Of a DNA stretch of 64,000 nt, positions 3,497-41,400 are shown in pieces; the stretch's first letter is position 1, and every line of letters begins with the position of its first letter. The translations under genes were made by a program, and so were the position numbers. The stretch covers positions 930,501-994,500 of the forward strand of contig NC_081810.1 of the NCBI RefSeq assembly GCF_030704535.1, given 5' to 3'. The notes under the pieces are model-generated. The model was not told where the DNA came from. It saw nothing but the letters and a program-made list of their open reading frames with translations, and did not search any database. The stretch comes from Vitis vinifera (taxonomy: Eukaryota > Streptophyta > Magnoliopsida > Vitales > Vitaceae).

Positions 3497-3574
3497 CGCC
3501 AGAGCAGAAAGGGCCTGAGGAGAGGTAGAGGTAGAGGTGGTGATTGTGCAATTCCATCACCCTCATTAAGAATA

Positions 3575-3875
3575 TATGGGGTGATGACTTCATAAGGGTG
3601 ATTTCATTATGAAGTCACCACCCTCATTAAGAATATATACATACACTTGAAGTGCTGGTGGTGGGTAGTGGTATATATAAAATGCAATGATTTTTGGGTG
3701 GTGACTTCATAATGGTGATCATATCATGACGAAGTCACCACCCTCATTAGGAATATATATACATACTTCATTTTACATGCCAAAACTATGAATATGTATA
3801 AGTCACCACCCCAAAATCATTGTAATTTATATGCTAAAACTATATATGGAATGGTTTTGGGGTGGTGACTTCATG
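3575..3875. promoter_or_regulatory. Repeated dyads around GTGACTTCAT upstream of the dioxygenase
   Basis: Directly upstream of the dioxygenase start, the motif GGTGGTGACTTCAT and its complement ATGAAGTCACCACC recur in opposing pairs: about 3579-3626, about 3697-3743, then a single AGTCACCACCCC near 3802 and GGGGTGGTGACTTCATG near 3857. Each pair forms an imperfect hairpin of about 50 bp, and CCACCCTCATTAGGAATATATA-like tails follow. The TGAC core with dyad symmetry is the kind of site bound by bZIP (TGA) or WRKY factors. That reading is inference; the alternative is a degenerate tandem repeat with no function. A TATATATAAAA tract lies near 3672-3682. Confidence 0.5.
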
Positions 3876-4244: not shown

Positions 4245-4491
4245 AAATTAAAATTCAATATATATGCAGGGATTTAATAAAATATATGTATAAAAAAACC
4301 CAACTTTTATAAATCAATTTTATATTTATTTATTTAAAAATATTTTAAAATACATACACTTTCCATGACTAAGATATTTATTTCCTAAAATATCCTTTTA
4401 CTTGATTAAATAACATAAAATTATCAAAAGAAAATAATTTATCATTTTAATTTGATAAAAATATATTACAAATAAATATATTATAATTTTT

Positions 4492-4791
4492 TATTATATA
4501 ATATTAGATACAAATCATTTTGGAAAAATTCTCTTGGATTCTCAAGTGATAAATAATTTTTCTTAATTATCTAATTAATAATAATTTTAAATATTGTATT
4601 ATATAAATATACTCTATTTTTTTTAATAAAATTGAATAAAAAAATTATTAATTGGCATCAACAATAAAATAAGAAATTTTAAAAATTTTAAATACAATTA
4701 AAACAAAAAAAAATAGAAATTAAAACCAAAAAACTTAAAATTTTAAAGAATAAAATATTGACTTTCATTGTATTTTCAACTTTTTATTAAT
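4492..4791 (+). repeat. Left copy of the 300-bp direct repeat flanking the viral insert
   Basis: Aligned by eye with 10314-10612, the two copies are identical except for the length of one A run (9 versus 8). The copy is part of the host inverted-repeat arm and does not have TG...CA ends, so it looks like duplicated target DNA rather than an LTR. Confidence 0.85.
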
Positions 4792-5009
4792 GAACCGAGT
4801 GGTGTTACTAGTTGGAACAGTGATTAATCGCAGATTTAGTCCTGACTTAGTTCGGGTTGAATTTCCTGTGAACGGTTTGGTCAGCCTGTGATAAGCGGTG
4901 TTTAAGGGCAGAAGGAGCGTAAGTCCCGTGTTGATCCGCTTGTGGTGGTCCCTGTTCAGGAAATTATCTGAATTAATTAAGGATAAAATTGTGATTATTT
5001 TCTGTGACA

Positions 5010-8000
5010 ATGAGTAATATTATTAGGAGATTAAGTAGAGGTAGTTCTTCCAAATCACTTAGGTCTAATGATAGTTCTGCATCATCATCTGCATCATTAA
5101 CTGCATCATCAATTACTCAAAACATAGTTAATAGTCAAGAAATAAATATTGCTCAAATAGAAAGTCAACTTCATAATTGGTCAATTCCTCACATGAAAAT
5201 TAATACAATATATCAACAAGGAAATTTTGAATTTAATCAAAATTATTCAATAAAAACTGAAGAAAAAACTATATCTCTTAATCAAAATTTAGAAAGTCTT
5301 CAATTATTAAGTCAAAATACTATTAATCATCATAGGAAGAAATTCAATTATATTCATATAGGATTAGTTCAAGTTGCTATAAAACCTTTATTTAGGCTAG
5401 GATTAGATATTCCTGTATTTACATGCCTTAGAGATGCTAGATCTATAAATTTTTCTGATTCAATACTTAGCATGATAGATTCAAACCTTGCTAATGGTCC
5501 TATTTATTTTAATTGTTTTCCAAACTTTTCCATGAACATAAATGATCCTAGTATACTTTCTAGTTTAACTTTAAATATTAAAACTAAAAACATGAATTTT
5601 GTAGAAGAAGCTCAAACTATAGCAATAATTTATAGGATATATTATAAAGTCATGACTACTCAACTAAATCCTAGAGCTATATGTCAATCTGTTAAGGATG
5701 AAACATTATTATTACAATATAATCCTAATAATACTCAAGCTTTTGTTCCTAAAAAATTAAAATGGAATGAAATTACTCAAGGAAGTCAATGGGAATTAAA
5801 AGATTTAACTCATCCAAAACCTATTAAACCTTTAACAACTCCTTCAAAAATTATTCAACATACTGATGGTACTATTCAAATAGAATTTTCTCCAGTTTCT
5901 AAAAATTCTTTCAATCAAGATTTCGTGAATTCAAGACCTTCTACTTCAAATGCTAGTCTAAATAGTGTCAATTTTGCTCCAAAAATTCCTATTCCTGTTT
6001 ATCAACAAAATGAATCCCCTCCTGTGTCTCCTACTCATTCGGATATGTTTCCTAATCAAGTCAACATAATTCATAAGAAAAATTACAAAAAGACTCCTTT
6101 TACTCCTAATGTAGAATGGATAAAATCAGATTATTTTTCTCCTAAAAATGATACAAAAAGAGCTTATTTTCAAACATTTCCTCCTCAAACTAGAAATGCA
6201 TTAAGAAAACAATATGAAAATTATATGAATCAAAAGAAAATTATTATTCCTTTTTTCTATTGGTTTTTCAAACTTAAAAAACAAAGAAAACAAATTATAA
6301 CTTTAAGAGATAAAGAAGGACACCAATTAGCTTTAAAACACTCAGAAAATATTCAAAAAAGAATTTTAACAATAACCTCAGAATTAGGTTCACAACCACC
6401 CTTAAATAATCATCAATTCAATTTTGATAATAATACAATTTCTGCATCTCCCTTTAAAATCCCAAGAACTAAAGATGAACAAAGTCCCATAATTTACAAA
6501 GACATTAGACAAATTCAACAACAATTAAATTATACAAATCATTCTCTTCAACATGTGAATCAACAAACAACAAAAATTTCTCAATTTTTGTTTTCTTCTG
6601 CCCCGAGAGAGAGGATAGGAGAAACAACAACATCAAAATCAAATTTTTCTTCAAAAGTTTCTTCAACTTTATCATCATCATCATCTTCATCTTCTAAGTG
6701 TTCAGACCAACCTTTTATTATTCCTATAAATGCTGCAAAATCAAATATTCAATTAGCCACACCAACAGAAATAATGTTAAAAGAAATACAAATGAGATTA
6801 GATAAACTCAATATTAATGGTATTAATCAAACCAAGAATCAAATTCAAACCATAACAAAAAGAAAATCAGAAATCAATAAAATAGAAGAACAATTCAAAA
6901 TGTCTCCTGATTCAATAGTAAAACCTCCTGCAACAGTCAATGCAATTTCTAATAATTTTGTAAGTAGAAAAAATTATTATTCAAAACCCTCTTTTCCTGA
7001 TGTCCAATTAGAAGAAAGAAATTATCAATTAGCTGCTAGTTATGATGGTAGTAGTTTTTATGAAGGGAATATAGATGGAATGAGTGAACATCAAATAATC
7101 AATCTGCTTCATGAAATGATGATGGCTGCTAATGCATATAGAATCAAGACTAGTAATTCTGACTTTCATGCTGCCGGTGTCTTGGTCATAGGATTCACTG
7201 GTTTGCTTAAAGGATGGTGGGATCATTATTTGAGTCAAAATGATAGAGAATATATATTAAATGCAAAAAAGACAATAATTAAAGAAGAAGGAACATCAGT
7301 CCAAAGTTATGAAGAAGATGTTGTCAATACTTTAATATTTTCAATAACAAAACATTTTATAGGAGATCCAGTATATTTTCAAGAAAGAACTTCTGAAATC
7401 CTTAACAATCTTAGATGTCCAACACTTCAAGATTTTAAGTGGTATAAAGATATGTTTTTAGTCAAAGTTATGTCAAGACCTGATTGTGGAAATCATTATT
7501 GGAAAGAAAAATTTATATCAGGATTACCCACTTTATTTGTAGAAAAGGTTAGACAAAGAATAAGAAATATTCATAATGGTAGGATTCCTTATGAGTCATT
7601 AACATATGGAGAATTAATTACTTTTGTTAATAATGAAGGTTTAGCTCTTTGTACAGATCTTAAATTAAAGAGTCAAATGAAAAAAAAGAAACAAGATAAC
7701 AGAAAAGAATTAGGAAAATTTTGTTCATATTATGGTTATGATACATTAGTTGCCCCTTCAAAAAGAAAAAATAAACAAAATAAAATAAATAATAAAAAAC
7801 CTTCAACAGAATCAAAATTTCAAAAGAAGTTTGTAAAATCTACTCCTAATAAATCAAAACCTCCAAATAAATCAAATTTAAAAAAGAAAACACCTACTTG
7901 TTACAAATGTGGAAAAGTAGGTCATTATTCAAGAGATTGTCAATTAGAAAATAAAATCAATTCATTAGAAATAAGTGATAAACTCAAAAATTTAATGATA

Positions 8001-9629
8001 GGATTAATGATTGATAAAGAAAATAATGAATCAAGTGAAAATTATGAATCAGAAGAAGATAATCAAATCCTCATAACTCAAGAAATATCAAGTGAAGAGT
8101 CAAGTCTAGAAGAAGAATCAGATAATCAAAAAGATTGTGATGGTATTTGTGCATGTTCATATAAGTCAATAAATGTGATTTCAAAATATTCAAAAACTCA
8201 TTTTAACATCATTATTAGAAATTATGTTCCTCTCATAAACTCAATATATTTTCAATTTTGGTATGATAAAGACAAAATCATTAGATATTTGTTTTATTCT
8301 TCAATAGAGATACTAATATTTGAATTTTGTTTACAGATGGAGCAAGAAAGAATTACATTTGGGAAATTTACTCTTCCAGTATTTCCTAAATGTAATCTCT
8401 CATTTCGAATTCATAAAGATATTGAAGGTTTAGACAGATCACAAAAATGCATTTTAGACAACCTCTGGAATGCAAAAAGTGATATTCAAAAGTTGGAAGC
8501 TTTAAATGCATTATCTTTCCATTTTAAACAGTTAAATGATAAATTAGAAAGTTTTTCTAACCCTTCAAGTTCTGATATACATTGCACACCAATGGATACA
8601 GATCTTGAAAATTTCATTTGCAGGAAAAAAGCAAAAGGATCCAAAGATGCATTTTCAAAAGATTTTCAAAATGAATTTCAAAAAGAACTTTCAAAACCAA
8701 ATGAAGATTCAAAACTTTCTCAAGAAAGCCAAGAATGTCAAATTTCCAGATTTTCATTTTTCAAGTTGAAAAATTTGGACCTTCTTGAAAACCTTAGACA
8801 GATGATCTGTGAAAAGGCTAAAGCTACAGGAGAAGCAAAGCAAGAGCATATCATGCAATTTCTTGCTGACTGTAGCACTTTTGGAATTACTATTCAAGGG
8901 ATGAGCTTCACTTGGATTTCTTGTTATGACAACACTTATAATAATTGTCTAAAGACCGATCCCTTGTGTAGAGAAATTCCATTAGAAAGGCATGACTGTA
9001 AGTGTGCTCTTACTTACAGTATATGCAAAGCCAACATTAACCTAGACAGTTATAAACCGATAGTCATCAAATTTAACAATGAGTCAATAGAGTTAACTCC
9101 ATCCCTCCTCATGGACTATGGAGTTCTTTATCAATTGATTTTCTCTCATCCTGATCAAACTGATAAATGTGGAAGAAAATTAGCTGTTTGTGTTTTAAAT
9201 GCCTTCATCAATGATTTCAAATCTGTCGAACTCATCATAGAAAGTAAACCTCCTGAATGGTCGAATGATGGAGGAGTCTACCCTGCTCAACATCTCATTT
9301 TACTCAAAGCCAATCAGAGAAAACATCAGCTGTTTGGTACAGAGGACCCTTGGCCCTGTACTAAATCCAGTCTCAAAAAACAAATCAGACATTGGAGATC
9401 AAGAATGATTGCAAGAGACCTTGATTCCGAGATTTATAGTTCTTCCAACTATAATCTCATTGCTGAAGATAATATTCAAAAAATCATCTCTGCAAATAAC
9501 TTTCATGAAGTCCCTCTTTTGTTTCAAACTCAATTTACTTATCTTGTTGATAAGTATAAAAAAGAATATGTCCTTGAAGAAGAAGCCAGAAAAACTTTTG
9601 AGAAATATCTCTTAGAAATGCTCAGCTAA
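5010..9629 (+). CDS. Caulimovirid polyprotein: movement protein, coat protein, zinc knuckle, unknown C-terminal module
   Basis: The frame is open for 1,539 codons from the ATG at 5010; an upstream in-frame GTG at 5004 is less likely as the start. Residues about 60-230 read as a 30K-superfamily movement protein (HIGLVQVAIKPLFRLGLDIP, then NLANGPIYFNCFPN). Residues about 290-660 are low in complexity, rich in Ser, Asn and Gln. Residues about 665-900 form a gag/coat-like helical region (DFHAAGVLVIGFTGLLKGWW). A lysine-rich stretch precedes the CCHC knuckle CYKCGKVGHYSRDC at about 964-977, followed by a Glu/Ser-rich acidic tract. Residues 1110-1539 are a separate module I do not recognise. Base composition is strongly AT-rich with matching codon use. 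It is treated here as a viral fossil that looks whole. Confidence 0.75.
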   Translation: MSNIIRRLSRGSSSKSLRSNDSSASSSASLTASSITQNIVNSQEINIAQIESQLHNWSIPHMKINTIYQQGNFEFNQNYSIKTEEKTISLNQNLESLQLLSQNTINHHRKKFNYIHIGLVQVAIKPLFRLGLDIPVFTCLRDARSINFSDSILSMIDSNLANGPIYFNCFPNFSMNINDPSILSSLTLNIKTKNMNFVEEAQTIAIIYRIYYKVMTTQLNPRAICQSVKDETLLLQYNPNNTQAFVPKKLKWNEITQGSQWELKDLTHPKPIKPLTTPSKIIQHTDGTIQIEFSPVSKNSFNQDFVNSRPSTSNASLNSVNFAPKIPIPVYQQNESPPVSPTHSDMFPNQVNIIHKKNYKKTPFTPNVEWIKSDYFSPKNDTKRAYFQTFPPQTRNALRKQYENYMNQKKIIIPFFYWFFKLKKQRKQIITLRDKEGHQLALKHSENIQKRILTITSELGSQPPLNNHQFNFDNNTISASPFKIPRTKDEQSPIIYKDIRQIQQQLNYTNHSLQHVNQQTTKISQFLFSSAPRERIGETTTSKSNFSSKVSSTLSSSSSSSSKCSDQPFIIPINAAKSNIQLATPTEIMLKEIQMRLDKLNINGINQTKNQIQTITKRKSEINKIEEQFKMSPDSIVKPPATVNAISNNFVSRKNYYSKPSFPDVQLEERNYQLAASYDGSSFYEGNIDGMSEHQIINLLHEMMMAANAYRIKTSNSDFHAAGVLVIGFTGLLKGWWDHYLSQNDREYILNAKKTIIKEEGTSVQSYEEDVVNTLIFSITKHFIGDPVYFQERTSEILNNLRCPTLQDFKWYKDMFLVKVMSRPDCGNHYWKEKFISGLPTLFVEKVRQRIRNIHNGRIPYESLTYGELITFVNNEGLALCTDLKLKSQMKKKKQDNRKELGKFCSYYGYDTLVAPSKRKNKQNKINNKKPSTESKFQKKFVKSTPNKSKPPNKSNLKKKTPTCYKCGKVGHYSRDCQLENKINSLEISDKLKNLMIGLMIDKENNESSENYESEEDNQILITQEISSEESSLEEESDNQKDCDGICACSYKSINVISKYSKTHFNIIIRNYVPLINSIYFQFWYDKDKIIRYLFYSSIEILIFEFCLQMEQERITFGKFTLPVFPKCNLSFRIHKDIEGLDRSQKCILDNLWNAKSDIQKLEALNALSFHFKQLNDKLESFSNPSSSDIHCTPMDTDLENFICRKKAKGSKDAFSKDFQNEFQKELSKPNEDSKLSQESQECQISRFSFFKLKNLDLLENLRQMICEKAKATGEAKQEHIMQFLADCSTFGITIQGMSFTWISCYDNTYNNCLKTDPLCREIPLERHDCKCALTYSICKANINLDSYKPIVIKFNNESIELTPSLLMDYGVLYQLIFSHPDQTDKCGRKLAVCVLNAFINDFKSVELIIESKPPEWSNDGGVYPAQHLILLKANQRKHQLFGTEDPWPCTKSSLKKQIRHWRSRMIARDLDSEIYSSSNYNLIAEDNIQKIISANNFHEVPLLFQTQFTYLVDKYKKEYVLEEEARKTFEKYLLEMLS
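8337..9629 (+). other. Unknown 430-residue C-terminal module of the viral frame
   Basis: This module begins with MEQERITFGKFTLP right after TTTACAG, a splice-acceptor-like sequence. It contains Cys-rich segments (ETFRIH-like start, then DPLCREIPLERHDCKCALTY) and a conserved-looking SKPPEWSNDGGVYPAQHL stretch. It sits where other caulimovirids carry the transactivator/viroplasmin or the florendovirus ORF2 of unknown role. Separate expression by splicing onto this ATG is possible, since several caulimovirids splice their RNA, but that is inference. Confidence 0.5.
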
Positions 9630-9899
9630 GAGATATCAAGAATCAAGAATCTTTTATACATCTGTAAAGTAGCTCTCTTGTGATTATCCAAAAAAAAAAA
9701 AAAAAGAACAGTATATGAAGTCTGAAGAAGTGCACAGTGCACAGTTTGTAAAAATAAAAAAAATTAAAAAAAAACAAAAAAAAAAAACATGAATAGTGTT
9801 TTGTGAATAGTAAATTCCGTCCTTTAAAGTAAAAAGCAAGATGACTCATTGCCCATGTGATGAAATGAAGAAGAAGAAAGCAAATTTACCTCCTGCATA

Positions 9900-10201
9900 C
9901 ACGTGGAAGACATCCAAGGCATAAAACTTTCAAGCCTTTGCTATAAATAGGGCTCAAAGGCTTCCTCCCAAGGCAGAGGTCGGCAAGAGTAGAGAGAAGT
10001 CGGCAAGGGTTCAAGAGCTCCTACAGCCAAGAGAGAGCTTAGGAAGGTTTCAATAGTTTTGAGAGTTCAAAAAAATTAGTGAAAAAATTCTGAGAATTCA
10101 AAAATTTCTCTTGTAATTTTCTCTTTGAGTTAGAGTCATTCCTCTGTTGTCAACAACCTGTAATCATCAACTCTCTGTAATCAAGGTATATTTTCAATAA
10201 A
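9900..10201 (+). promoter_or_regulatory. Pregenomic-RNA-type promoter, leader start and poly(A) signal of the viral insert
   Basis: A G-box-like CACGTGG at about 9901-9907 precedes the TATA box CTATAAATAG at 9941-9950, with GA-rich leader sequence after it. AATAAA lies at 10196-10201, about 220 bp downstream of the expected transcription start. A poly(A) signal a short way after the start site is the layout caulimovirids use to make a terminally redundant RNA from a circular genome. Two imperfect copies of a roughly 45-bp unit ending in AATTAGACAG follow at about 10220-10313. Confidence 0.6.
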
Positions 10202-10313
10202 CAATATTTTCAGATTCAAATATTTGTGTTATTATGCTTAAATTTCTGCAATAAATTAGACAGTATTAGACATTAAATATTTCTGTTTTTATGCTTGGAG
10301 ATAATTAGACAGA

Positions 10314-10612
10314 TATTATATAATATTAGATACAAATCATTTTGGAAAAATTCTCTTGGATTCTCAAGTGATAAATAATTTTTCTTAATTATCTAATTAA
10401 TAATAATTTTAAATATTGTATTATATAAATATACTCTATTTTTTTTAATAAAATTGAATAAAAAAATTATTAATTGGCATCAACAATAAAATAAGAAATT
10501 TTAAAAATTTTAAATACAATTAAAACAAAAAAAATAGAAATTAAAACCAAAAAACTTAAAATTTTAAAGAATAAAATATTGACTTTCATTGTATTTTCAA
10601 CTTTTTATTAAT
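10314..10612 (+). repeat. Right copy of the 300-bp direct repeat flanking the viral insert
   Basis: This pairs with 4492-4791 at an offset of about 5.82 kb and differs only by one A in a homopolymer. Host sequence continues past it and is inverted-complementary to the left flank, which supports a host origin for the repeat. Confidence 0.85.
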
Positions 10613-12049
10613 ATCTATATTTTCTACTAGTATCATTTAAAAAAATGAAAGTTAATATTTTATTTTTATATTTTTAACTTTAAAGTTTTTAAATTTTAAT
10701 TGTATTTTTTAATTTCTTATTTTAATTAGTTTAAAAAATTGTCACTTGGTAAAATTATTCATTCAAGTAAAAGGTCATTTTAAAAAATAAATATATGACT
10801 TATGAAATAATGCATGTATTTTAAAATGTTTCTAAATAAATGAATATAAAACAGATTTATAAAAATTGAAATTATATATATATTGAATTTTAATGATTCT
10901 AAAAATGAAACAATTTTATAAGATTGGTTATTATCGTAATTGATTTTGACTCTTTGGAATTGACCCGTTTCATTTCTAGTCACAGCTTGAGCTTAATCTA
11001 ATTTAAATCTGATCACTCTAGCATTGAACTTGATTAAATCATTTGTAAAATTATTAAATTTTACTCAAGTATTAGACTTAGTGTCAATCCAATGCAAGCT
11101 TGGCTTGAGGCTTTCCTAGGGTGGTCAAGCCGAAGGCATCCAAGTCGGGCCCAAACCCAAGCCAAGAGACTCATTGTGGACCTCGCATTTCGGCTCAATG
11201 CGTTTCCCACTTGAATGACGAGCTCGATTTTTATTTGAAAATGATTTATTGATTATTTGAAAATGACTTGGAGTCGCCACTTATTTTTGTTTTATTTTTA
11301 AAGGGTAAACAAAATAAAAAAGAAAAACCCTAAGTGTGACTCTTGGTTTTGGAAAAGGCGGCCTGTGAAAAACCGGATCGGGTTCGGGGGTCAGGTTACT
11401 TATCGGGAAGGTACGGTAAAGACCGTAGCACCCCTCTAAGTCCCTAAAGTCGGGTTTCTACTAATAGAATGAAGCTGACGTGGCAATCAACGAGAAAGTC
11501 AATGGATATTCACCTAAATCATGCACAATATGAGAATCAAAACACGCAATAGAGATTGACTAGAAAGGAAGTGGATGCGTACCTCGACCACGAGCCACAA
11601 TGCGCTATCAAGAAACGGGCTTAGTGCATAATTAATGAATACAAAACATAGCTCATACATATCGGAGTGCAAAACGAAGCTCAAGCGAAATACAGTAAGC
11701 ACAATAATTGACAATCAAAAGGGGTCAAACATAGGGCTCCCAACAAAGCCCGATTTATTGTTCATGAGTTAATCTCATAAATCCCGTGTTTTAGAATTAT
11801 GAAGGAATCACTATTGCTTATGTAAAATCAAGAAGATCAGAAGATTATTTAGGAACTGAAATGTGATTAAAAACTATTCGAGTAAAAACTGGATTATTGG
11901 AGCTTATTTGAAAATTGGAGTATTTGAAATTAAATTTTGAAGATTAGGGCTCTGGTGATTAAATCGAAATTTGTTAAAGAAAATGAGACGGACTTTAGGA
12001 AATTGAACTGTGAGACCATAGACTTTTGAAAGTTGAATTTATAATAATG

Positions 12050-14394: not shown

Positions 14395-17300
14395 CTCCCC
14401 CTCAAGCCGCGTTGTAGATGTTGATCATTCCAAGTTTTTCTGTCAGATCTTTGAAGTTAACTCGAGCAAGAGCTTTTGTGAGAATGTCAGTCATTTGACA
14501 GTTTGTCGGAGTGGAGCTGACTTTGAAAACTCCTTCTTCAATCTTTTCCTTGATAAAGTGTCGATCTATCTCCACGTGCTTAGTTCGATCATGATGAACC
14601 GGATTCTTAGCGATACTGATGGTAGCTTGATTGTCGCAGTATAACACCATGGGATGCTTGAAAGCTTCCTGAATATTCTGAGGAACTTGTATCTCTGTGA
14701 TGCTAGAAGTGAATGCACGAAACGTAGGTGATAGCTTATCATAAGAAATAAAATTTCCAATGGGATGCTGAGTGCATGATCTAACTCCTTTCCTCCAAGC
14801 TATGGGCATATTAAGAATATCATTTTCTAACTCGAAATCAACAGTACCATCAGGAGCATTGTTACCTGGAAGTTTGCTTGGATTAGGACCCGGTTCTGCC
14901 TCATGGGTTTGTTGAGAAAGTGCTCTTTCCTCCGTTTCCTCTTGGATGTGCTCCTTATCCCACAAGTCAACAATGGACTCGGGTTGATTAAATGACTCTG
15001 GAGGAATGTGATTTTCAGTGGTGATGGGTGACTCACTGAATGACTCAAGATCCCAAAATTGATATTCTTGAGTTGAATTCTCCCCTTGAATATCGTTTTT
15101 GGGATAGTAAGGCCGGGTTTCAAAAAAGGTGACATCCATTGAATTGTAGAATTTTCTTGTGACCGGAGAGTAACACTTATACCCTTTTTGATTTGAAGAA
15201 TACCCAAGAAAGATGCACTTGAGTGACCTAGGATCAAGTTTACTTCTATGTTGTTGATTGATATGAACAAAGACAGAGCACCCGAAAATTTTGGGTGGGA
15301 CGGTGGAGATGAGACGAGTAGTCGGAAAGGATTTTAGGAGTGTTTGACAAGGTGTTTGGAATTTTAGTACCCTAGACGGCATCCTATTGATGAGGTAGGC
15401 TGCCGTAAGTACAGCTTGCCCCCAGAATAATTTTGGAACATTCATGGAGAACATTAGTGATCTAGCCACCTCTAACAAATGCCTATTTTTCCTTTCAGCG
15501 ATTCCGTTTTGTTGTAGGGTATCAACACATGAACTTAAGTGAACTATCCCTTCTTGTGCTAGAAATTCTTCTAGAATGGAGTTGAAATAATCCCTAGCAT
15601 TATCAGACTTTAGAATTTGTATTTTTGACTGGAATTGGGTCTGAATCATATTTTTAAAATTTTTGAAAATTTGACTCGTTTCAGATTTTTCTTTCATGAG
15701 GAATACCCAAGTTAATCTAGTGTGATCATCTATGAATGAGACAAACCACCTAGTACCAGTTACATTTTTTTATTCTTGACGGACCCCAGATATCGCTATG
15801 AATCATTGAGAATGGACTAAACTCTTTATAGGGTTGAATGGGAAAGTGAGACCGGACTTGCTTTGATAATTGACAGATTTCACACTCAAAGGATTTTGGA
15901 TTTTTATTAAATAATGAAGGAAATAAATGCTTGAGATACATAACATTTGGATGACCTAAGCGATAGTGCCACAACCTAATTGCACTATCGTTATTTTGAC
16001 ATGAAACCGAAAAAGAATTACTACCAACTGTCATTTGAGGTTGTTCTTGTGGATCATGGCGCTCCTTAAGGATGTAGAGTCCAGAGCATTCCTCAACATT
16101 GCCAATCGTCTTCCCCGAATCCAAATCCTGAAATTCACAGTGAGTGGAGGAAAAATTAGTAATACACCTCTTTTCCTTAGTGAGTTTACTAATTGACAAT
16201 AGATTACAGTCCAAGTTAAGAACAAGGAGAACAGAGTTGAGAGTAAGATCCCTTGATAGCACAACTGAACCTGTTCCGGCAACCTTTGATAGTGAACCAT
16301 CTGCTATTCGGACTGTTAAATTATTTGGACATGAGCTATATGTATCAAAAATTGTCGCATCTCCCGTCATATGATCAGATGTTCCTGAGTCCACTATCCA
16401 AGGTTTTTTACGTTTCTTACCAGCAGTGAAGGCACTCAAAAAATTACCTTTGTGAGCCAAGGTTCCGGAACCAATGACCTGGTTGGAAGATGAGCCAGTT
16501 TGTGACTGTACTGGCAAAAGAGGAGACAGTAGTTTCTGAAGCATCTCCATTTGCTCCTTATTAAAAGGGCTAGCTTCAGGTTGTGGCGATTGTTCATCGG
16601 TAGCCACATGATTGCCTCGTCCTTCTTTCTCAAGTGGTTGACGTGGCTTCCAATCTACTGGCTTTCCATGAATCTTCCAGCAAGTTTCTCTTGAGTGTCC
16701 TGGCTTTCTACAATGATCACACCAAGGTCTACCTCCTTTAATTTTTTGACGGTTGTCAAAAGGAGCGAATTGAGTCTTAAGAGCCGAGCTTTCTGCCATA
16801 TTCAGTTGTTGATGGGATCCCATCATGAGATTTTTCCGACTTTCTTCGCGACGGACTTCAGAGAATGCCTCTCTGAGGCTAGGTAGGGGTTTTACTCCCA
16901 TGATTCTTCCTCTGATTTCATCAAGATTTTTGTTCAAACCTAACAAAAATTTAAACACACGTTTCCCTTCGACAATCTTTTTATACAAAAAACCATCTGT
17001 AACACAATTCCAGTTATGAACCTCAAACGTATCAAGTTGACGCCATAGACGAGTAAGAGTATTGAAATATTCAGTTACCGTAAGGTTCCCTTGACGCAAA
17101 TCGTGGAGGATGCCTTCAATCTGGATGATTTCAGATGTGTTTTCCTTGTCTGAGAAAGTTTCTTTTGCAGTGTTCCAGATTTCTTTGGCAGTATCAAATG
17201 ACAGAAAATTTTCACCAATGTCAACGGTCATAGAGTTGACTAGCCAGGACATGACCATATTATTTTCTGCTATCCACTTTTTGTAGGTTGATGCTGTGGT

Positions 17301-17611
17301 TTCTGGTGCCGCCGAAGCTCCGGTGATGTAGTCATCTTTCTCCTTTCCCCGTATAAACATTAATATGGACTGAGACCATTGCAAATAATTTTGCCCATTC
17401 AGTTTATGGGCTGTGATTGGAAGATGAGAGGTTTCCATCTGATGAGAGGATGAAGATGATGAGATGATGATATCAGAAGTAGAGGATGATGAATTGGTAG
17501 CCATTCCAAAGGCTGGACCGTATTTAGGCATAAATTAGAAGAATAGAATTGAGTAAAAAAACCGACTAAAGATGAAGACGATGAGACAGGATTAAACCTG
17601 CTCTGATACCA

Positions 17612-20237: not shown

Positions 20238-21665
20238 CTACTCTACATCCCCATCTTCCACTCTTTCCCTAACAGTATCGAACCCAAGCCACATCCTTGA
20301 CTTGCAAAAATTCATCAAAAAGTACCAAAAAATCCCAACAAGCGTGAGCAGACCACTAACCATACAGACAGTTTTGGTAGCAATTGCCATCACAAAGACC
20401 AAAAACCCAGAAGGAACCAAGCACATGATCACCAATCCAGGCAGCCCCATTGGCACCTTGTATGGCCTGTTCACCGCCGGCCACCTCCTCCTCAACCAAA
20501 GGAATGAGGCGAATTCAAGTAACATCCCTAAACTGTACAGAAAATTGGCTGAAGAGATTATATCACTGAAATCCATAAAAGATACTGCAAGTCCGAATAC
20601 AGTTGATATCAGAATTCCCACCCAGGGTGTGTTGAACCATGTCGATCTAACCCCGAAAAACCGAGGCACAAATCCTAAATCCGCCATGCCCAGAAGCTGG
20701 TAAGCACAGCTGCTCAACTGTGCCTCAAAGAGCCCAATTGTTGATAAAACAGCCCCAACTTCCACCCAGACTTTCAGCCATTTTCCGGCGATGATTTGAG
20801 CCACATTGGCAAAATAGCCGTCCACCCAGTCTTCCTGGTCTAAGGGAATAGCCCCAGTTGCAGCCAAGAGAGGGATCAAGTATGCCAAACAAACAAGCAT
20901 ACCAGCAGAAAACAGTGCCTTGGGAAAGGTCTTTTGTGGCTGATCAACTTCACCAGCTAAAGTACTTGCACTGTCCCAAAAATTCAAGTTCCAGAAGAGG
21001 GTATTGAAGAACAATGTCCAATCTTTCTTTACACCTTTCTCACCCAAACTCAGCCACCTGATTGGCTCAATTTTAGGTATAGATATCAAAGTAAGAACCA
21101 GAAATGGAGACAGTGAAATAATCCCTAGAGAAACTGCAGTATAACCCACTATGCTCAAACCTGTGTAGTTCAGAAAGGAGAGCAGCAGAGTTGAAAACAA
21201 CACTGCTAAATACCTAGGAAGGCCGGAAGAGAAGATGGGGAAGAGGAGTTTGAGGTAGTCCACACAGAGAACTGGGTAGGAAGCAATGTTGATGACACCA
21301 CAGAGGAACTTCCATGAGCCCATGAGGGAGCCCCAGAAGGGGCCAAAGGCTTGGTGAGCCCATATGACAAAGCCGCCGTTGCCGGGGAAAGTGGTGGCGA
21401 GCTCAGCAGTGACGAGAGCTTCCGGGATGCTCCATATGAAGGGGAAGATGAGGAAGCCAAGGATGGCCAAGAGGGGTCCTGCTGCACCAACTGCTTGCTC
21501 TTCTCCATATGGGCCTCCAGCTACTTCAAAGTAGATCAGAAAAATTAATGGGATTAGAGCTAGCTTCTTTGGGTCTTTGGTGGCGGTGGCGGTGGTGCTG
21601 GCGGTTGGTAGTGGTTCTTCGAGAAGATAAGGTGGAGATTTTGGGGTAGAATGTGAGATTCCCAT
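20238..21665 (-). CDS. Polyamine/amino-acid transporter (PUT/LAT family), copy A
   Basis: This intronless gene encodes 475 aa and belongs to the APC superfamily, closest to the plant L-type PUT/LAT transporters such as Arabidopsis At3g13620. These proteins import polyamines such as putrescine and spermidine (and paraquat) by proton symport at the plasma or Golgi membrane. A hydrophilic 35-residue N-terminus precedes [23 protein letters not shown], where GGPYG is the first-helix substrate motif. About 12 hydrophobic segments follow. Further family blocks are [40 protein letters not shown] and [15 protein letters not shown]. The frame is intact and full length. It lies head-to-tail with copy B about 1.4 kb upstream, so the pair arose by tandem duplication. 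Substrate is inferred from family. Confidence 0.92.
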
Positions 21666-23078: not shown

Positions 23079-24530
23079 TCATTCTTGTTCATATTGTTGA
23101 ACTTCATGTTCATATTGTTGAACTTCATGGCTGAACTTGAACCATTTCTTTTTCTTGCAGAACTTCATCAGATAGTACCATCCAATTCCAAACACTGTCA
23201 CCAGACCACTGATCAAGTACACAATCTTGGTGGCAATGGCCATTATGACAATCAGAAACCCAGATGGAATCAGGCACATTATGATCAATCCAGGCAGCCT
23301 CATTGGAACCCGGTATGGCCTCTTCAGGGTGGGCTGCTTCCTCCTCAGCCAGAGGTAGGAGGCAAACTCCAGCAACATCCCCAAGCTGTATAAGAAGTTT
23401 GCAGAAGATACTATGTTAGAGAAGTCCATATAGGAAACTCCAATGGTGATCGCAGTGGACAGCAGTATGCCCACCCATGGAGTGTCGAACCATTTTGATC
23501 GGATGGCAAAGAATCGGGGCAATAATCCTAAATCTGCCATGCCCACAAGCTGGTACACACAGCTGCTCAGCTGAGCTTCAAAAAGGCCAATTGAGGACAG
23601 AACTGCACCTATTTCAATCCAGACTTTCAGCCATTTTCCAGAGACTATGGCAGCAGCATTGGCAAAGAATCCCGACTCCCACTCACTCTGGTCCACGGAC
23701 ACAGCGCCAGTGATGGCAAAAAGAGGAATCAAGTAAGCAACACAAGTGAAAATCACAGCACAAAACAGCGCCAGAGGAAAGGTTTTCTGGGGTTTTTCTA
23801 CTTCCCCTGCTAGTGTGCTCACACTGTCCCAAAAGTTCAAGTTCCAGAAGAGGGTATTGAAGTAGAGATTCCAATCTTTCTTCACACCCTTCTGCCCTAA
23901 ACTCACCCATCTGTGGGGATGAATCTTGGGGATTGCAATAAAAGACATGAGTATAAAAGGGAAGAGAGAAATCACACCCAAAACAACTGCAGTATACCCC
24001 ACAATGACCAAACCCATATAATTCAGAAAAGAAAATGTCAGAGTGAAACCCAACAGAGCAAGCCTTCTGGGCAGACCAGAGGAGAAAACTGTGAAAAGCT
24101 GCTCCAGGTAGTCCATACACAAGACAGGGAAAGCAGCCACATTGACGACCCCACTGAAGAATTTCAATGTCCCCATGAGAGACCCCCAAAAGGGGCCAAA
24201 TGCTTGATCTGCCCATATCACAAAACCCCCGTTACCAGGAAAGGCAGTGGAGAGCTCAGCAGTGATGAGAGCCTCTGGGATGCTCCATATGAAAGGGAAG
24301 ATCAGGAAGCCCAAAATTGCCAGCAAAGGCCCCGCTGCCTTCACTGCAGGCTCTTCTCCAAAGGGGCCACCAGCAACCTCAAAGTAGATGAGGAAGATCA
24401 GTGGGATAAGGCTCAGTTTCTTTGAGGCCTTGGTGGTGGGTGTGGCTGTGGAGGTGGGGAGTTCTTGAGCCGTGTCTGGGGTTGGGGAAGAAAAAGCCAT
24501 GGACTCCGGTTTTGCTTCTGCAGCAGCCAT
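23079..24530 (-). CDS. Polyamine/amino-acid transporter (PUT/LAT family), copy B
   Basis: This intronless gene encodes 483 aa and is the tandem paralogue of copy A, with the same order of blocks: [75 protein letters not shown] and [11 protein letters not shown]. The first-helix motif reads GGPFG where copy A has GGPYG, a conservative change in the substrate site. The N-terminal 35 residues are Pro/Thr-rich and unlike those of copy A. The C-terminus ends with a duplicated octapeptide ([16 protein letters not shown]), a short in-frame 24-bp tandem repeat near 23080-23130. The start at [10 protein letters not shown] is the first ATG after a pyrimidine-rich leader, with a second Met at residue 11. 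The frame is intact; role as for copy A, by family. Confidence 0.92.
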
Positions 24531-31453: not shown

Positions 31454-34400
31454 ATCCCCCACTTGGATAAAAATAAACATCAACCCTTATAACCTCAACA
31501 ATGAAAATGCATAAAATAAAATATCTTTCGATTTGAATTTTACCTTAGTGTAATTGTCACAAAGCTCCGTTGAAATCCCAGGTTGTTTGTAGCATTGAAC
31601 TAGTTATTCCTTGTAACAAAACCGGTAACAACACACACACTTCCACTAACCACACGAGTGCCCATTGTTTTCTTGCTTAGCACTTTTATGGTCATGTGCT
31701 CAATCCATTCATGAACTTTCTTGAAAGAAACTCTAACTCTCATGAGAGGCGGCACCACCCCTAAGTTCACATAGGTGAAATTCTTCCAGCATCCTTGTTA
31801 CCTTTAAGATGCTTGTCACACATAGACTGAATTTCATTAAAAGCTTTAAGCTTAACCCTTCAACGGTAACAACCAGCATTAATCATCACAAATGGAACTC
31901 ACATGCTCTAATGCTACGACAACCCACTTATCAATGACTTGTTTTTACCTATTGAACTTAAGACTAATCATTTCTTAGTATTAAGTTAGGTTACCATCAT
32001 TGGTGAATTTTATTTAAGGAGTTTTAGTCCCATCCCTCTAAATGTTATCCTTACTAAATCTCTTGTAAGAGGTTTAGTAAAAGGATCCGTCAAGTTTCCA
32101 CTTGACCTCACAAATGAGATTGAGATGATTCCATTTTGAATCAATTGTCTCACATACTCATGTCTAATGCTTATATGTATAGACTTCCCATTGTACACTC
32201 CATTGTACGCACGAGCTAGAGTGGCTTGACTGTCACAATGTATCGACACTGTTGACACATTATTTACAATAAAAGGGATGTCCATCATGAGATCCCTAAG
32301 CCACTCAGCTTCTTTTCTAGTTGCAGCTAGAGTTATAAACTCTACCTCCATGGTTGAGTGTGATATACAAGTCTGTTTCTTGGATCCCCAAGAGACAGCC
32401 CCACCACCAAGTGTAAACACCCAGCCTGTGGTAGATAAATTATCTCCCACACTCGATATCCAGCTTGCATCTGAATACCCTTCAAGTATAGCAGGAAACT
32501 TTGAATATTGGAGGCTTAGTTCTTTGGTATTCTTTAGGTAGCCAAGAACTCTATCAATAGCTTTCCAATGTTCCACGCTTGGATTGCTAATAAACCTACT
32601 TAGTTTACTAACTGCAAATGAAATGTCAGCCCTAGTACACTGAGCAGCATACATAAGACTTCCAATTGCACTTGCATACTCAAGTTGAGTCACCGATCTA
32701 CCATCATTCTTTTCAAGTTTTATACTTGAATCAAATAAAGTATTAGCATCTTTAATCTTGAGATGACTAAATTTGCTAACTAATTTCTCAATATAGTGGG
32801 TTTGGTTCAAAGCATAACCCCCACTATTTCTTTTCACTTTGATACCCAATATAGTATTAACTTCTCCAAGATCTTTCATCTTGAAGGTTGAGGATAGAAA
32901 CCTTTTCGTTTCTATTATTCCTTTCATGTCATCACTCAAGATTAACATGTCATCCACATATAGACACACTATAACCACATAGTCATCACAAGTCTTAGAA
33001 TATAAGCATTTGTCCGCATTGTTGTGTCTAAATCCATCCGAAAGAATAGCATGATCAAATTTTCCATGCCATTGTTTGGGAGCTTGTTTTAAACCATATA
33101 ATGATTTGACAAGCTTACACACATTGTTTTCATTCCCCAGTAGAACAAAACCTTCCGGTTGTTCCATGTAGACCTCCTCATTGAGATCCCCATTCAAGAA
33201 TGCCGTTTTAAAATCCATTTGATGAACAAATAGATTATGAATTGATGCCAAAGCAAACAATATCCTAATCGATGTTGTTCTAGCCACCGGCGCATAGGTA
33301 TCAAAATAATCAATACCTTCTCTTTGTTTAAACCTCTTAGCTACTAATCTAGCCTTAAAGGTTTGAATCATGCCATCAGTGTGATATTTCCTTCGAAATA
33401 CCCACTTGCACCCTATTGGTTTAGATCCTGGTGGAAGGTCTACCAATTCCCATGTTTGGTTGGACATAATTGAATCCATTTCATCATTGATAGTCTCTTT
33501 CCAAAAAGCAACATCTCTAGAAGCCATAGCTTCTTTGTATGTTTTGGGATCCTCCTCTATTTGAAGTACTATAAGAATTTTTCTTATAAAATCTTCTCTA
33601 TTTCCTTCTACTAAGTAAAAGGAAATTCTTTGAGAGTCAATCTCATCCAATCCCAACACTTTCTCTTTTCTAACTCTTTGGCTTTTCCGAGGCACAATGG
33701 GTTGCTCAACAATCTTTGAAAGTGTCTCCTCTTGAGACTCTCCAACACTAGTAGGTACTTGAGAATTGCTATCACTCAACAAATTCTCAAAGAACTCTAC
33801 CTCTCTTGATTCAATTATCACATTAGACTCCAAGTCTAATAGCCTATAAGCTTTGCTATTTGAGGCATAACCTACAAATGCACACTTAATGGTTCTTGGA
33901 CCCAATTTTGTTTTATTAGGATCCGTTTTCTTGCAATAAGCAAGACACCCCCACACTTTGAAGTAACCTATATTAGGCTTCCTTCCTTTCTATAACTCAT
34001 ATGGAGATATCTCATTTTTCTTCATAGGAATTCTATTCAAAATATGGCAAGCAGTCAATAAAGCTTCACCCCACAAATTGAAATTCAATTTAGCATGCAA
34101 TAACATAGCATTCACCATTTCCAAGAATATTCTATTCTTTCTCTCCGCTATGCCATTGTGTTGAGGTGTATAGGGTGCGGTGCACTCATGTATTATGTCA
34201 TATTCTTCACAAAAAGAATTGAATTCACTAGAGAAATATTCACCACCTCTATCACTTCTAAGCACCTTAATATTTTTTCCTAGTTGATTTTCAACTTCGG
34301 CTTTGTAAACTTTAAAGGCATTGAAAGTTTCACTTTTGTTTTTCAATAAAAACACAGAGGTAAATCTAGAATAATCATCTATGAATGTAAGAAAATACCT

Positions 34401-35966
34401 ATTTCCACCTCTTGTTAACATGTCATTAAGTTCACAAAGATCACTATGTATTAAATCAAGCAAATTAGATGATCTCTCAACACTATGAAAAGGCTTTTTA
34501 ATCATCTTTGATTTAACACATATTTCACACTTTTCAAATTTCTTGGTATCACAAGCAATCAAACCACATTTCACAATCCTTTTAATAGTGCTTAAACCAA
34601 CATGTGCAAGCCTATTATGCCACAAAAATAAAGAATTTGAATCACACATATAAGCGGAAGTAGAAGCCATTTTATTGATATTGTCATTGGTACAAAGTTT
34701 GATCATCTCATCACAAGAATACCCTTTTCCCACAAAGTTCCCCGATTTGGATAAAATTAGCTTACCGAATTCAAACACCGCTTTGATACCCGGTTTGCCA
34801 AGCAAATCCCCACTTACCAAATTTTTATTCATATCGGGGACATACAATACATTTATAAGGGTAACCTTTTTACCAGAGGTAAAAACAACTTCAATAGTGC
34901 CCTTGCCAAGCACCTTGGATCTTCCTTCATTGCCCATTTGAATCTCTTGATCTCCCTTTGCATCTTCAAAGGTCTTGAAAAGAGTTTTTTCATAGGTAAC
35001 ATGAACTGTGGCACAAGTATCATACCACCATCCTTACACATTTCCTTGGACAACGCACATATCGCTTAGTGTTGCAATGATCTCCTCATCAATTGCATTC
35101 ACCACAGCCCCTTTTTGGTCCTTTCGGTACCTACACTCCCTAGCATAATGCCCGGGTTTTCCACACACAAAACAAGGATCTTTCTTGCCCTTAAATTGTT
35201 CTTGATTTTTCTTGGGGCTCATATAATTTCTGGAATTCTTTTTGTCGTTGTTATTTTTACCTCTAGGATGATTGGCCTTTGAAACCGCATTGGCTTTATT
35301 AGTCCCACCATTGGACTCTTCCACCATCTTGTCTCTTGATCTCGATTCTTCCTCAATGCGAAGATGTTTTTGAATCTCTTCCAATGAGTAATCTTCACTC
35401 TTGTGGAAAATCCTCTTCCGGTAACCTTTCCAACTTGATGGTAATTTAGCCACAATAGCACCAACTTAGAAGGCCTTCGGAAGTTCAATTTTGAGAACTT
35501 TCAACTTATTCACAATTACTTGCAACTCATGAATTTATGGTAAGAGAGGCTTTTCATCAAAAAATTTGAAATCTATGTATTGAGAAATAAGAAACTTTTT
35601 GGTACCTTCTTCCTCGGCTTTGTACTTGTTTTCAAGAACCTCCCAAATCTCCCTCGCGGAATTAGTGTTGGTGTAGAGATCATATAGCCTATCGGATAAG
35701 GCGTTCAAAATATGACCCCTACATATGAGCTCATCCTCCTCCCTCTTCTTCCTTGCCGCCACCACTTGAGGTGTGTCATTTTCCTTTGGTTCCGGTAACG
35801 GTGCCAATGTAGGATCAAGGATGTAGAAAATCTTGAGTGTTGTGAGAAGGAATCTCACCTTGTCTTGCCACCTAGTGAAGTTGGAACCATCAAAACGATC
35901 CAACCTCACAAGGTCTTGGTTCATAATCTTGATAGTCTCTCCTTCCATTGAAATAGAGTCTTTGAT

Positions 35967-38473: not shown

Positions 38474-41400
38474 CATGGATTGAAAAATCGGAAAATGTCG
38501 TCGATATTTCGGAGAAATATCGGTTATCGGGCGGCATCGAAACGATAATCGGCACCGATTATCGATCGACGGAAAAATCGACCAAAAATCGGCAAAATCG
38601 CCGATATATCGGCGAAATATCGGTGGAGGACCGAAAAATCGGCGAAACATCGGCGAGTGGAGCCACGCGCGGCGAAGACGGCAGAGGACAGGAAAAAATC
38701 GGCGATTAATCGGTAAAATCGACGATTTATCGCCGATTTTTTGCCGATAAAATCGCGATAAATCGGCGATTTTTTGAAAATATCGACGATTTTTTGAAGA
38801 TTCCCTGTTTTTGATCTGACGGCCAATTTTGAATTTTTGAGGATCTGATGGCCCAGATTTCACCCGTGTATGTAAAGGCCTCCAACGGTCAGATTTGTGA
38901 TCCAATGGTGGAAAATCAATCTTGACTTTATCCAAGGGCTATGGAGTGTTTCCAACGGTTATATGAAGATCTAATGGTGAAATTTGAACCAAATTTTGAT
39001 CCAACGGTTAAAATTAATTTATAACGGCTAGTTTGGCCATCCAACGGCTAGTTTGACCAAAAAAATTCCTATAAATACCCACATTCCATTTCATTTCATA
39101 CATCAAAATTCTTATATGATCTAGCAAAATTTTTTTATTTTGAAAATTTGGTGGTGAAGGGGATTAACTCCAAGTCAAGGCTAATTAAGGTATGTCTTAC
39201 CTTTCATAAAATTTATTTTATTATGCATAATTCAATTTTATTTGTTATATATAGTTTAATTGATATTTTCTAATTCATATGGAAATGTAATTGTAATGTT
39301 TATCTATTTCATATATGCATAATTCAATTTTAATTTTTATTAGTAATGATTCTTATCAATTTCATGAATATGCAAATTTAATTTATTTTAATTTAATTTA
39401 ATTCTTATCAAAATTTTATTGTAATGTTTATCTATTTCATATATGCATAATTCATTTTTAATTTTAATTTTTATTAGTAGTGATTCTTATCAATTTCATG
39501 AATATGCAAATTTAATTTATTTAATTCTTATCAAAATTTTATTGTAATGTTTATCTATTTCATATATGCATAATTCAATTTTAATTTCAATTTTTATTAG
39601 TTCTTATCAATTTCATGCATATTAAATTTCTTACATGTTTTATCTTTAATAATTTTAAATTTGATATTAGTTTCATAATTCAATTTTAGAAAATGGCTAG
39701 TGAAAGCGATACCATGGGTCGAGATCCTTGTTGGAAATATTGTACACCTATGGAAGGGAACAAAAATGGAACAATATGCAATTACTGTGGGTTGGCAATA
39801 AAGAGTGGTGGGATTACTCGTTTTAAATTTCACCTATCACATACAGACCCTAATTCAAATACAAAAAAGTGTCCTAACGTGCCTCCAGAAGTGAAACAAG
39901 AAATAAGACGACTTATAGAGCAAAGAAATAAGACAAAAGCGAAGAAAGCTGTTGATATAGAAGAGATTCGAGCAGAACTGCGAGACACAATGGGAAGAAG
40001 ACATAGGCATTTAATTGATGAGGACGATGAGGAGAACCTTGGTGGTGATGGTGGTGGTGATGGTGGTGGTGGTGGTGGTGGTGGTGGTGATGATGATGAT
40101 GATGGAGATGATGATGTGTATATGTATCCGGCTGACATGCACCCTGATGAGCGACATGCTTATAGAGAGGCGGTTCGAGCATCAAAAGCTGCTGAATGGA
40201 ATCGACAACAACAAGAACATTTTATAAAAGGCAAAAGAAAAACAGGTATAATATTAATTTGAATTATTACTGTTTCTTATCAACTTTATCAATAATATTA
40301 AATTAACATATATGTTTAATTTTAATAATTATAATAGGCGAGTCTTCACATCCAACCAATCCAACAACAAGGCAAATGCGAAAATCGCAAAGTGTTCGAT
40401 ATTCAGATGCATCACTGCCTGATGCACCCTCATTGTACAAATCTTCAGCAGCAAGACAGAAAACTGTGAAAAATCTTTTCAAAGGTGGTGCCATCAAGGA
40501 AACCATGGGACGTTTGATCAGTAAGTTCTTCATATATGAGAGTGTTCCGCCAAGTAAAGCAGACTCTCACCACTTCAAGAACATGATTGTTGGTGCACAA
40601 CAAGCAGGTAATTACTATAATTTTAAAAGTTGTATTTATTTGAACAATATCATTACTATTTATATAGTATGATTGACACAAATGTTCTTATATGTTTTAA
40701 TTATATATGGATGGTAGGTATGGGTATAGAACCGCCGTCTCCTTATGAAATCAAACACAAGTATTTGGATATGGAGTACAAAGACATGGAAGCTTATGTC
40801 AATATTCAAAGAGAAAAGTGGAAGACTTATGGATGCACGATTATGTCTGACGGATGGACTGGGCCCACGAAATTAAGCATAATTAATTTCATGGTATATT
40901 CAAAAGGTAGCACAATCTTCCTCAAATCCGTTGATGCATCAAATAATATAAAGGACAACAAATACATATATGGTTTGTTGAAGGATGTGATCAAGGAAGT
41001 TGGCAAACAAAATGTGGTCCAAATAGTTACAGATAATGGGTCGGCATTCGTGAAGGCGGGGAAGTTGTTAATGAAGAAATACAATCTTTATTGGACTCCG
41101 TGTGCAGCACATTGCATCGACTTAATGTTCGAAGACATCGGTAAAAGGACGAGTGTTGCAGATCTGATTACAAAGGCTCGAAAGATAACCAACTTCATTT
41201 ATAACCATAGTTGGTTGCTTGCACAGATGCGGAAGGTGTGTGGTGGAGACATAGTTCGTCCTGGAGCAACAAGATTTGCAACCAATTATATAGCCCTTGA
41301 CAGTCTTTTGAAAAAGAAAGCAAACTTGAAGAAAGTGTTTATCAGTGATGAATGGGCACAACACAACTTAAGTCGCACATTAATCGGCAAAGAGGTTGAA

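What the first reader, a model, noticed from the sequence alone, without database searches (positions are those of the whole stretch)
4792..10313. Whole-looking pararetroviral insert that lacks any polymerase module
The single 1,539-codon frame has a movement protein, a coat/gag region and a zinc knuckle, followed by its own promoter and poly(A) signal, but no protease, reverse transcriptase or RNase H. Two-component florendovirus genomes have been proposed for grapevine and rice. This 5.5-kb insert could be a near-complete movement/coat component, or a chimaeric or previously unlisted kind of caulimovirid satellite. The long open frame argues for recent integration.
Basis: partly seen in the sequence, partly recalled or inferred. 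Interest (0 to 1): 0.88.

Follow-up and report, generated by a model that had tools for sequence, protein, structure and literature searches.

The report
Coat-half of a two-part plant virus
This is a recently inserted, still open copy of what looks like one half of a two-part plant virus: it carries the movement and coat genes, while the copying enzymes sit on a separate element elsewhere in the same, probably grapevine, genome.

Summary
A 5,522-bp insert (4792-10313) has one 1,539-codon frame with movement, coat and zinc-knuckle domains, promoter and poly(A) signals, and no protease, RT or RNase H. It is not a private deletion: its polymerase-less junction is in 40 of 40 scored genome matches (window included; 119 candidates, 79 unscored) and in five older copies whose C-terminal domain is 60-78% identical. 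A second element with protease-RT-RNase H, no coat gene and a 94-99% identical leader exists in the same genome, at four loci joined head to tail with the first. dN/dS across copies is 0.14-0.39 in every part of the frame (wrong-frame controls 0.56-2.06), so it replicated under selection. Best reading: component B of a bipartite florendovirus, a kind described from Vitis vinifera in 2014. Two published features are not met: no protease domain, and the 430-aa C-terminal extension shows no detectable homology to the partner's ORF2. The insertion is young: it lies in an AT-rich host foldback and is flanked by a 300-bp duplication without substitutions. I could not compare it with the published reference sequences; replication in trans is inferred.

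The parts
4279..4413 (+). left arm of AT-rich host foldback element
   Evidence: inverted partner at 10755-10890, 82% over 114 bp
4492..4791 (+). left copy of 300-bp duplicated host target sequence
   Evidence: identical to 10314-10612 except one 1-nt indel in an A run
4792..5009 (+). viral leader; in other copies it begins 26 nt after the first base of the primer motif TGGTATCAGAGC
5010..9629 (+). single open frame of component B (1,539 codons)
5238..5654 (+). movement protein domain PF01107
   Evidence: E 4.7e-21
7041..7283 (+). DUF7746, part of the coat/gag region
   Evidence: E 1.6e-28
7407..7688 (+). caulimovirid coat protein domain PF22909
   Evidence: E 8.4e-12
7896..7943 (+). CCHC zinc knuckle
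   Evidence: E 8.2e-8
8262..8336 (+). 25-codon linker where most relatives aligned continue towards a protease; overlaps a TACTAAT...TTTACAG splice-acceptor-like sequence
   Evidence: 75 nt in 15 of 18 copies; acceptor-like AG kept in 12 of 17 sites read
8337..9626 (+). C-terminal extension, 430 aa, 50.0 kDa, no known domain, under purifying selection
9942..9948 (+). TATA box of the viral promoter
10183..10189 (+). splice-donor-like AAG|GTAT in the leader, the only match to [AC]AG|GTA[AT] in the insert
   Evidence: AG|GTAT in 18 of 20 IGR copies read
10196..10201 (+). AATAAA poly(A) signal (another at 10250)
10314..10612 (+). right copy of the duplicated host target sequence
10755..10890 (+). 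right arm of the host foldback element

Best explanation
The insert is an endogenous copy of component B of a bipartite florendovirus (Caulimoviridae). In the living virus, component B supplied movement protein, coat protein and an extra 430-aa protein. Component A, a separate circle with nearly the same leader and primer site, supplied protease, reverse transcriptase and RNase H plus a separate ORF2. B RNA was reverse transcribed in trans by A's enzymes, and A was packaged and moved by B's proteins. This copy entered the chromosome without an integrase: a break in the middle of an AT-rich foldback was repaired with a viral molecule opened close to the primer-binding site, duplicating 300 bp of host DNA. 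Shown: architecture, recurrence, a complementary partner, shared leader, joined A-B loci, selection on the frame, flanking duplication. Inferred: trans-complementation, packaging of both, the repair route, and that the extension may also be made from spliced RNA.
For: Junction in 40 of 40 scored matches (window included) of 119 candidates, 37 of the 40 aligned over at least 1-297 of 301. In fetched stretches, 12 of 12 near B junctions run straight from the post-coat region into the extension; in five older copies (extension 60-78% aa) the extension follows the coat match after 472-482 nt in four and 548 nt in L033, where the coat match stops short. Partner A: protease, RT or RNase H pieces in 13 of 20 stretches (15 distinct places); 8 of 8 units readable from leader to protease (L009, L012, L014, L017, L018, L021, L024, L027) hold no coat hit. 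A leaders 94-99% to the window, 98.6% in the two aligned globally. Primer motif in 13 of 14 gaps between units, one of the 13 only as a 10-mer. Head-to-tail joins at L009/L010, L012, L014/L015, and L016 (start of A only). dN/dS 0.14-0.39 in frame, 0.56-2.06 out of frame. Duplication without substitutions. Precedent in V. vinifera (PMC4241990).
Against: Two published features of component B are not met: no AP domain, and no detectable homology of the extension to A's ORF2 (hhalign probability 0.1-0.2%); the profiles are shallow. The whole intergenic region is less alike between window and A copies than the published >90% (promoter segment 82-97%, 5' half 73-80% in the pieces that match). L027 also holds RT pieces only 51% identical to the query, so another caulimovirid exists in the genome and could have helped. 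No reference VvinBV or VvinDV sequence was at hand, no RT tree was built, and replication in trans was not tested.
Confidence: 0.84

Rival explanations
1. A defective or satellite DNA of an autonomous, monopartite florendovirus: B was multiplied by a complete helper virus, not by a mutually dependent partner.
For: B has no enzymes of its own. Geering et al. say dependence on a helper cannot be discounted. A monopartite relative is described from grapevine. A more distant RT type is present in L027.
Against: The RT element sharing B's leader lacks coat and most of the movement gene in 8 of 8 readable units, so it is no helper on its own. Movement and coat parts of B are under purifying selection, unexpected if a helper supplied them. 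Five older copies keep the layout.
Confidence: 0.12
2. An incomplete integrant: the polymerase module was lost from this one copy during or after integration.
For: Integrated caulimovirids are often truncated (established knowledge). The window copy does lack the stretch around the primer site, 70-106 nt in the gaps read in other copies.
Against: The same junction is in 40 of 40 scored matches, with a 75-nt linker in 15 of 18 copies. Six places, the window included, hold open frames of 1543-1546 aa; three of them, on C5, are probably duplicates (82 of 1134 candidates scored).
Confidence: 0.02
3. An LTR retrotransposon, the 300-bp repeats being its LTRs.
For: Two near-identical direct repeats flank the insert.
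Against: Among 33 fetched loci the repeat matches only L001, which is this same place (low-complexity filter on). It continues on both sides as a host foldback. The domains are caulimovirid.
Confidence: 0.01
4. A host gene family domesticated from the virus; the selection is on a host function.
For: dN/dS is low.
Against: Scattered copies, many with stops; all parts constrained alike; viral leader kept; A-B joins.
Confidence: 0.01

Closest known systems
Component B of bipartite florendoviruses VvinBV and VvinDV, Vitis vinifera (Geering et al. 2014, PMC4241990; passages, section 10 and the first part of section 12 seen)
   Same: 5.5-kb unit, one polyprotein with movement and coat, RT missing, a C-terminal extension, a component A with a nearly identical leader, compound A-B insertions, uninterrupted frames at several loci
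   Different: No protease domain and no RNase H remnant found; extension not detectably homologous to A's ORF2; the matching A lacks coat and most of the movement domain.
Monopartite florendoviruses and Petuvirus (PVCV)
   Same: Movement, coat and zinc knuckle in one polyprotein; tRNA-Met primer site in other copies of this element
   Different: Those carry AP-RT-RH in the same polyprotein; here it is on another unit
RTBV ORF4 and CaMV leader splicing (PMC5902531, passages seen)
   Same: One splice-donor-like site in the leader and one acceptor-like site in front of a downstream coding region
   Different: Only predicted here; the extension is also in frame with the upstream polyprotein, and the acceptor AG is missing in 5 of 17 sites read, 4 of them in the 5 older copies

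Membership tests
Bipartite florendovirus component B (as described in PMC4241990) | 5.5-6.9 kb unit with a single polyprotein carrying MP and CP | tested here: met
   5,522-bp insert, one 1,539-codon frame, MP and coat domains
Bipartite florendovirus component B (as described in PMC4241990) | RT and N-terminal RH1 missing | tested here: met
   window; nothing between coat and extension in 17 of 17 fetched B junctions read
Bipartite florendovirus component B (as described in PMC4241990) | AP domain present in component B | tested here: not met
   no Pfam hit, no D[TS]G[AS] in forward frames, no tblastn hit; AP lies on the partner
Bipartite florendovirus component B (as described in PMC4241990) | C-terminal extension homologous to component A's ORF2 | tested here: not met
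   extension present; blastp to A's ORF2 no better than E 9.5, hhalign probability 0.1-0.2%; shallow profiles
Bipartite florendovirus component B (as described in PMC4241990) | Intergenic region >90% identical to a component A | tested here: inconclusive
   leader 98.6% and 3' part of the promoter region 94.9-97.4% in the copies aligned, but longer promoter matches of A copies are 82-90% and matching parts of the 5' half 73-80%
Bipartite florendovirus component B (as described in PMC4241990) | MP domain >87% nt identical to that of component A | tested here: inconclusive
   A keeps only about the first 74 nt of MP (86-90%) and a C-terminal stretch (78-82%)
Bipartite florendovirus component B (as described in PMC4241990) | Compound A-B insertions in the genome | tested here: met
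   L009/L010, L012, L014/L015, L016
Florendovirus | RT-RH phylogenetic placement | not tested
   no labelled reference set at hand; A-type RT pieces are 70-79% identical to a Trifolium relative, one in L027 only 51%
Florendovirus | ORF2 of 45-58 kDa after ORF1 | tested here: met
   on component A: 49.4 and 49.6 kDa in two copies, start overlapping a stop (TAATG) in 7 of 7 copies read, frames checked in L010 and L014; 28.6% identical to a Citrus protein segment, E 2e-24 within a set of 158 proteins; that this Citrus protein is florendoviral is inference
Caulimoviridae | 30K movement protein, caulimovirid coat and CCHC knuckle, tRNA-Met primer site | tested here: met
   domains; primer site missing in this copy but present in 13 of 14 gaps between other units
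LTR retrotransposon | LTRs shared by copies, integrase | tested here: not met
   the repeat matches only this locus among 33 fetched; no integrase domain in the frame

The most novel reading that the evidence does not exclude
Component B of this bipartite virus carries a lineage-specific gene of its own, unrelated to the partner's ORF2, fused to the coat polyprotein where the polymerase used to be. Splitting the genome freed room for a new gene that selection has kept in recent and older B copies alike, and which may be made both as a fusion and, by leader-to-extension splicing, as a free protein.
Probability: 0.35. Interest if true: 0.72.

Novelty: new variant of a known kind. Interest (0 to 1): 0.56.

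Why it matters
Bipartite florendoviruses were proposed from reconstructed sequences, and dependence on a helper was left open; divided genomes are described as unique among viral retroelements (PMC4241990, PMC10377300, passages seen). Purifying selection on a frame without its own enzymes, a layout kept in older copies, a partner lacking the missing half, and joined A-B loci together make the two-part reading much harder to avoid. The unmatched extension is a candidate new viral gene.

Tried and rejected
Rejected: LTR element; private deletion; polymerase elsewhere in the window. Led nowhere: three viral-contig scans (no relative confirmed); Rfam at gathering threshold (0 matches); AlphaFold of the extension (mean pLDDT 31.9 and 33.9: not used, no fold search made); PDB profile search (best E 0.081). 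Three protein searches: C-terminal piece 8 hits, MP piece 30, coat region 148 of which 120 listed. P0001, a V. vinifera gene model, first looked like proof of a second polymerase-less copy, but its introns could hide a polymerase, so I did not rest on it.

Limits of the genome counts: the genome search scores only the best candidates (40 of 119, 40 of 245, 82 of 1134); the junction query by nature ranks junction-bearing copies first; the 20 stretches were picked from such hits and cover 15 distinct places. Comparisons under 100 codons were left out of the dN/dS pools.

Splicing: the acceptor rule was written after seeing the site, the donor patterns before. Shuffles gave means of 1.67 donors and 0.18 acceptors per insert against 1 and 1 seen, so donors as such are not enriched; only the place in the leader is notable (0.17 expected there). 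Against it: the linker is also conserved as protein, and 5 of 17 sites read lack the AG, 4 of them among the 5 older copies. Left as a weak prediction. My notebook wrote 17 of 20 donors; the recount is 16 of 20 for AAGGTA and 18 of 20 for AG|GTAT.

Full report
What is there. The insert spans 4792-10313 and is flanked by two copies of a 300-bp AT-rich host sequence (4492-4791, 10314-10612) that differ by one base in an A run and by no substitution. The host sequence is the centre of a foldback element whose arms (4279-4413, 10755-10890) lie outside the duplication. Among 33 fetched loci, the duplicated sequence and the left flank match only L001, which is this same place; the right flank matches none (low-complexity filter on). 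Inside are a leader, one frame of 1,539 codons, and an intergenic region with a TATA box at 9942 and AATAAA at 10196 and 10250. The frame encodes a 30K movement domain, DUF7746, a caulimovirid coat domain and a CCHC knuckle. There is no protease, RT or RNase H.

Where the frame departs from relatives. In an alignment with eight relatives, six (P0046, P0048, P0143, P0147, P0058, P0124) continue from the coat region to a protease with D[ST]GAD; P0041 and P0047 do not reach one. The window frame leaves this path soon after the conserved stretch that follows the knuckle, passes a 25-codon linker and enters a 430-aa, 50.0-kDa extension without known domains. A search with the C-terminal 440 residues found eight relatives at E up to 0.001, one of them a V. 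vinifera gene model 96% identical over 308 residues.

It is not a private deletion. The assembly that holds the window has 495.6 Mb in 21 contigs. A 301-bp query across the coat-to-extension junction gave 40 scored matches out of 119 candidates, the window included, all crossing the junction at 91-100% identity. Such a query ranks junction-bearing copies first, so it shows recurrence, not the share of all copies. The movement piece gave 40 scored of 245 candidates, 86-100%, 20 of them at 95% or more. In the 20 stretches fetched (15 distinct places), all 12 B junctions read run straight into the extension. In the five older copies fetched the extension (60-78% identical in protein) follows the coat match after 472-482 nt in four and after 548 nt in L033, where the coat match stops short. 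L030 is a rearranged locus with RT pieces upstream of its coat region, not between coat and extension. The linker is 75 nt in 15 of 18 copies and frame-neutral in 16 of 18. Six places, the window included, hold open frames of 1543-1546 aa; three of them lie close together on C5 and are probably duplicates.

The partner. Thirteen of the 20 stretches hold protease, RT or RNase H pieces. In the eight units readable from leader to protease (L009, L012, L014, L017, L018, L021, L024, L027), the leader is followed by about the first 74 nt of the movement gene where covered, a short C-terminal bit of it and scraps of the middle region, with no coat hit; then come protease, RT, RNase H and a separate ORF2 of 49-50 kDa, whose start overlaps a stop (TAATG) in 7 of 7 copies read (not every unit is covered to its end). 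Ten of the 13 stretches have no coat hit at all, some because they hold only part of a unit; in the other three (L009, L012, L022) coat lies in a joined or neighbouring B unit. Leaders of A are 94-99% identical to the window; one further leader fragment in L027, of unclear kind, is 85%. A and B are joined head to tail at L009/L010, L012, L014/L015 and L016, the last showing only the start of A; each of these joins carries the primer motif, in L016 as a 10-mer. The two units are complementary, with no overlap in protease here.

Selection. Window codons were compared with those of fetched B copies, piece by piece. Pooled dN/dS (Nei-Gojobori) is 0.23-0.33 for movement, 0.32-0.39 for the middle region, 0.26-0.27 for coat, 0.14-0.25 for the post-coat part and 0.20-0.28 for the extension; the same alignments read one or two bases out of frame give 0.56-2.06 (single comparisons, where some reach 0.59). 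Differences are commonest at the third codon position in all ten pools. Limits: the window is one partner in every comparison, only alignments of 100 codons or more were used, and protein-guided alignment favours conserved stretches. Neutral decay after integration would raise the ratio, not lower it. The polymerase-less frame therefore replicated under constraint, extension included.

How it works. Shown: parts, recurrence, partner, shared leader, joins, constraint. Inferred: A's enzymes copied B RNA; B's coat and movement proteins served A; the viral molecule was opened near the primer site, because the insert begins 26 nt after the first base of that site and lacks the stretch around it, 70-106 nt long in the gaps read in other copies; a break in the foldback was repaired with this molecule and a 300-bp overlap was filled in. 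Geering et al. proposed capture at fragile TA-rich sites as filler DNA. With no substitution in 299 bp, the 95% upper bound on divergence is 0.010, or 0.4-2.0 million years at recalled plant rates of 1.3e-8 to 2.5e-9.

A weak prediction. The insert has one match to a splice-donor pattern, in the leader (10185), and one acceptor-like site ending at 8336, directly before the ATG at the start of the extension; there is no ATG between the presumed start of transcription and the donor. Six of 12 near B copies have the canonical TACTAAC branch sequence. Geering et al. suggested leaky scanning for ORF2; Pooggin and Ryabova named a subgenomic promoter or splicing. Against it, the linker is also conserved as protein and the AG is missing in 5 of 17 sites read.

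Compared with what is known. Geering et al. 2014 described this kind of system in V. vinifera, rice and sorghum; a later review mentions evidence from sugar beet. The 2014 text gives component B movement, coat and protease domains and an extension homologous to A's ORF2. Here B has no protease and the extension matches nothing in A (blastp to A's ORF2 no better than E 9.5; hhalign probability 0.1-0.2%), while A's ORF2 does match a Citrus protein segment (E 2e-24 within a set of 158 proteins). Either this is a further bipartite virus, or the published homology is too distant for my shallow profiles, or the text lumps several cases. Because two described features were tested and not met, I file it as a variant that works like component B. 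It may well be close to or the same as VvinBV, for which the authors report many entire component sequences, several uninterrupted ORFs and recent insertion changes; the study of Cauliv-1, which they equate with VvinBV, itself saw no pattern of recent activity for that element (PMC3299709, passages). On novelty of the selection test: the words 'purifying' and 'synonymous' do not occur in the main text of PMC4241990. A library search with florendovirus, purifying selection, synonymous, bipartite and component B (243 papers with at least three terms, 20 listed, titles and abstract starts seen) showed no such test of component B. Most subscription papers are not in that library.

Noticed in passing
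G000:C5:25056000-25103000: Five B junctions within about 36 kb and several IGR copies, including three B frames of 1546 aa with identical search scores; looks like local amplification of integrated virus.
   Followed up: no
G000:C13:7915776, 7953340, 7990889: Three B junctions spaced about 37.5 kb with the same identity, suggesting a tandem segmental duplication of host plus virus.
   Followed up: no
L018 2597-9922: One A unit between two B extension pieces in opposite orientations: a rearranged compound insertion.
   Followed up: partly
L027 37-1805: Protease and RT pieces (RT 51% to the Trifolium query) of a more distant caulimovirid type next to an A unit.
   Followed up: no
window 14402-17531 and 32010-34937 (-): Pieces of Ty1/copia elements; a perfect tRNA-Met primer motif lies at 17600-17611 on the same strand.
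   Followed up: no
window 40630-43328 (+): hAT transposase pieces in two separate frames (DUF659 and the dimerisation domain).
   Followed up: no
window 20238-21665 and 23079-24530 (-): Two neighbouring amino-acid permease genes.
   Followed up: no
window 3555-3874: Repeated and inverted GGTGACTTCAT-type motifs in the host DNA left of the insert.
   Followed up: no
L016, L029, L033 at the extension start: CAG to CAA changes at the acceptor-like site, as would be expected from decay of a methylated CHG site (inference).
   Followed up: no
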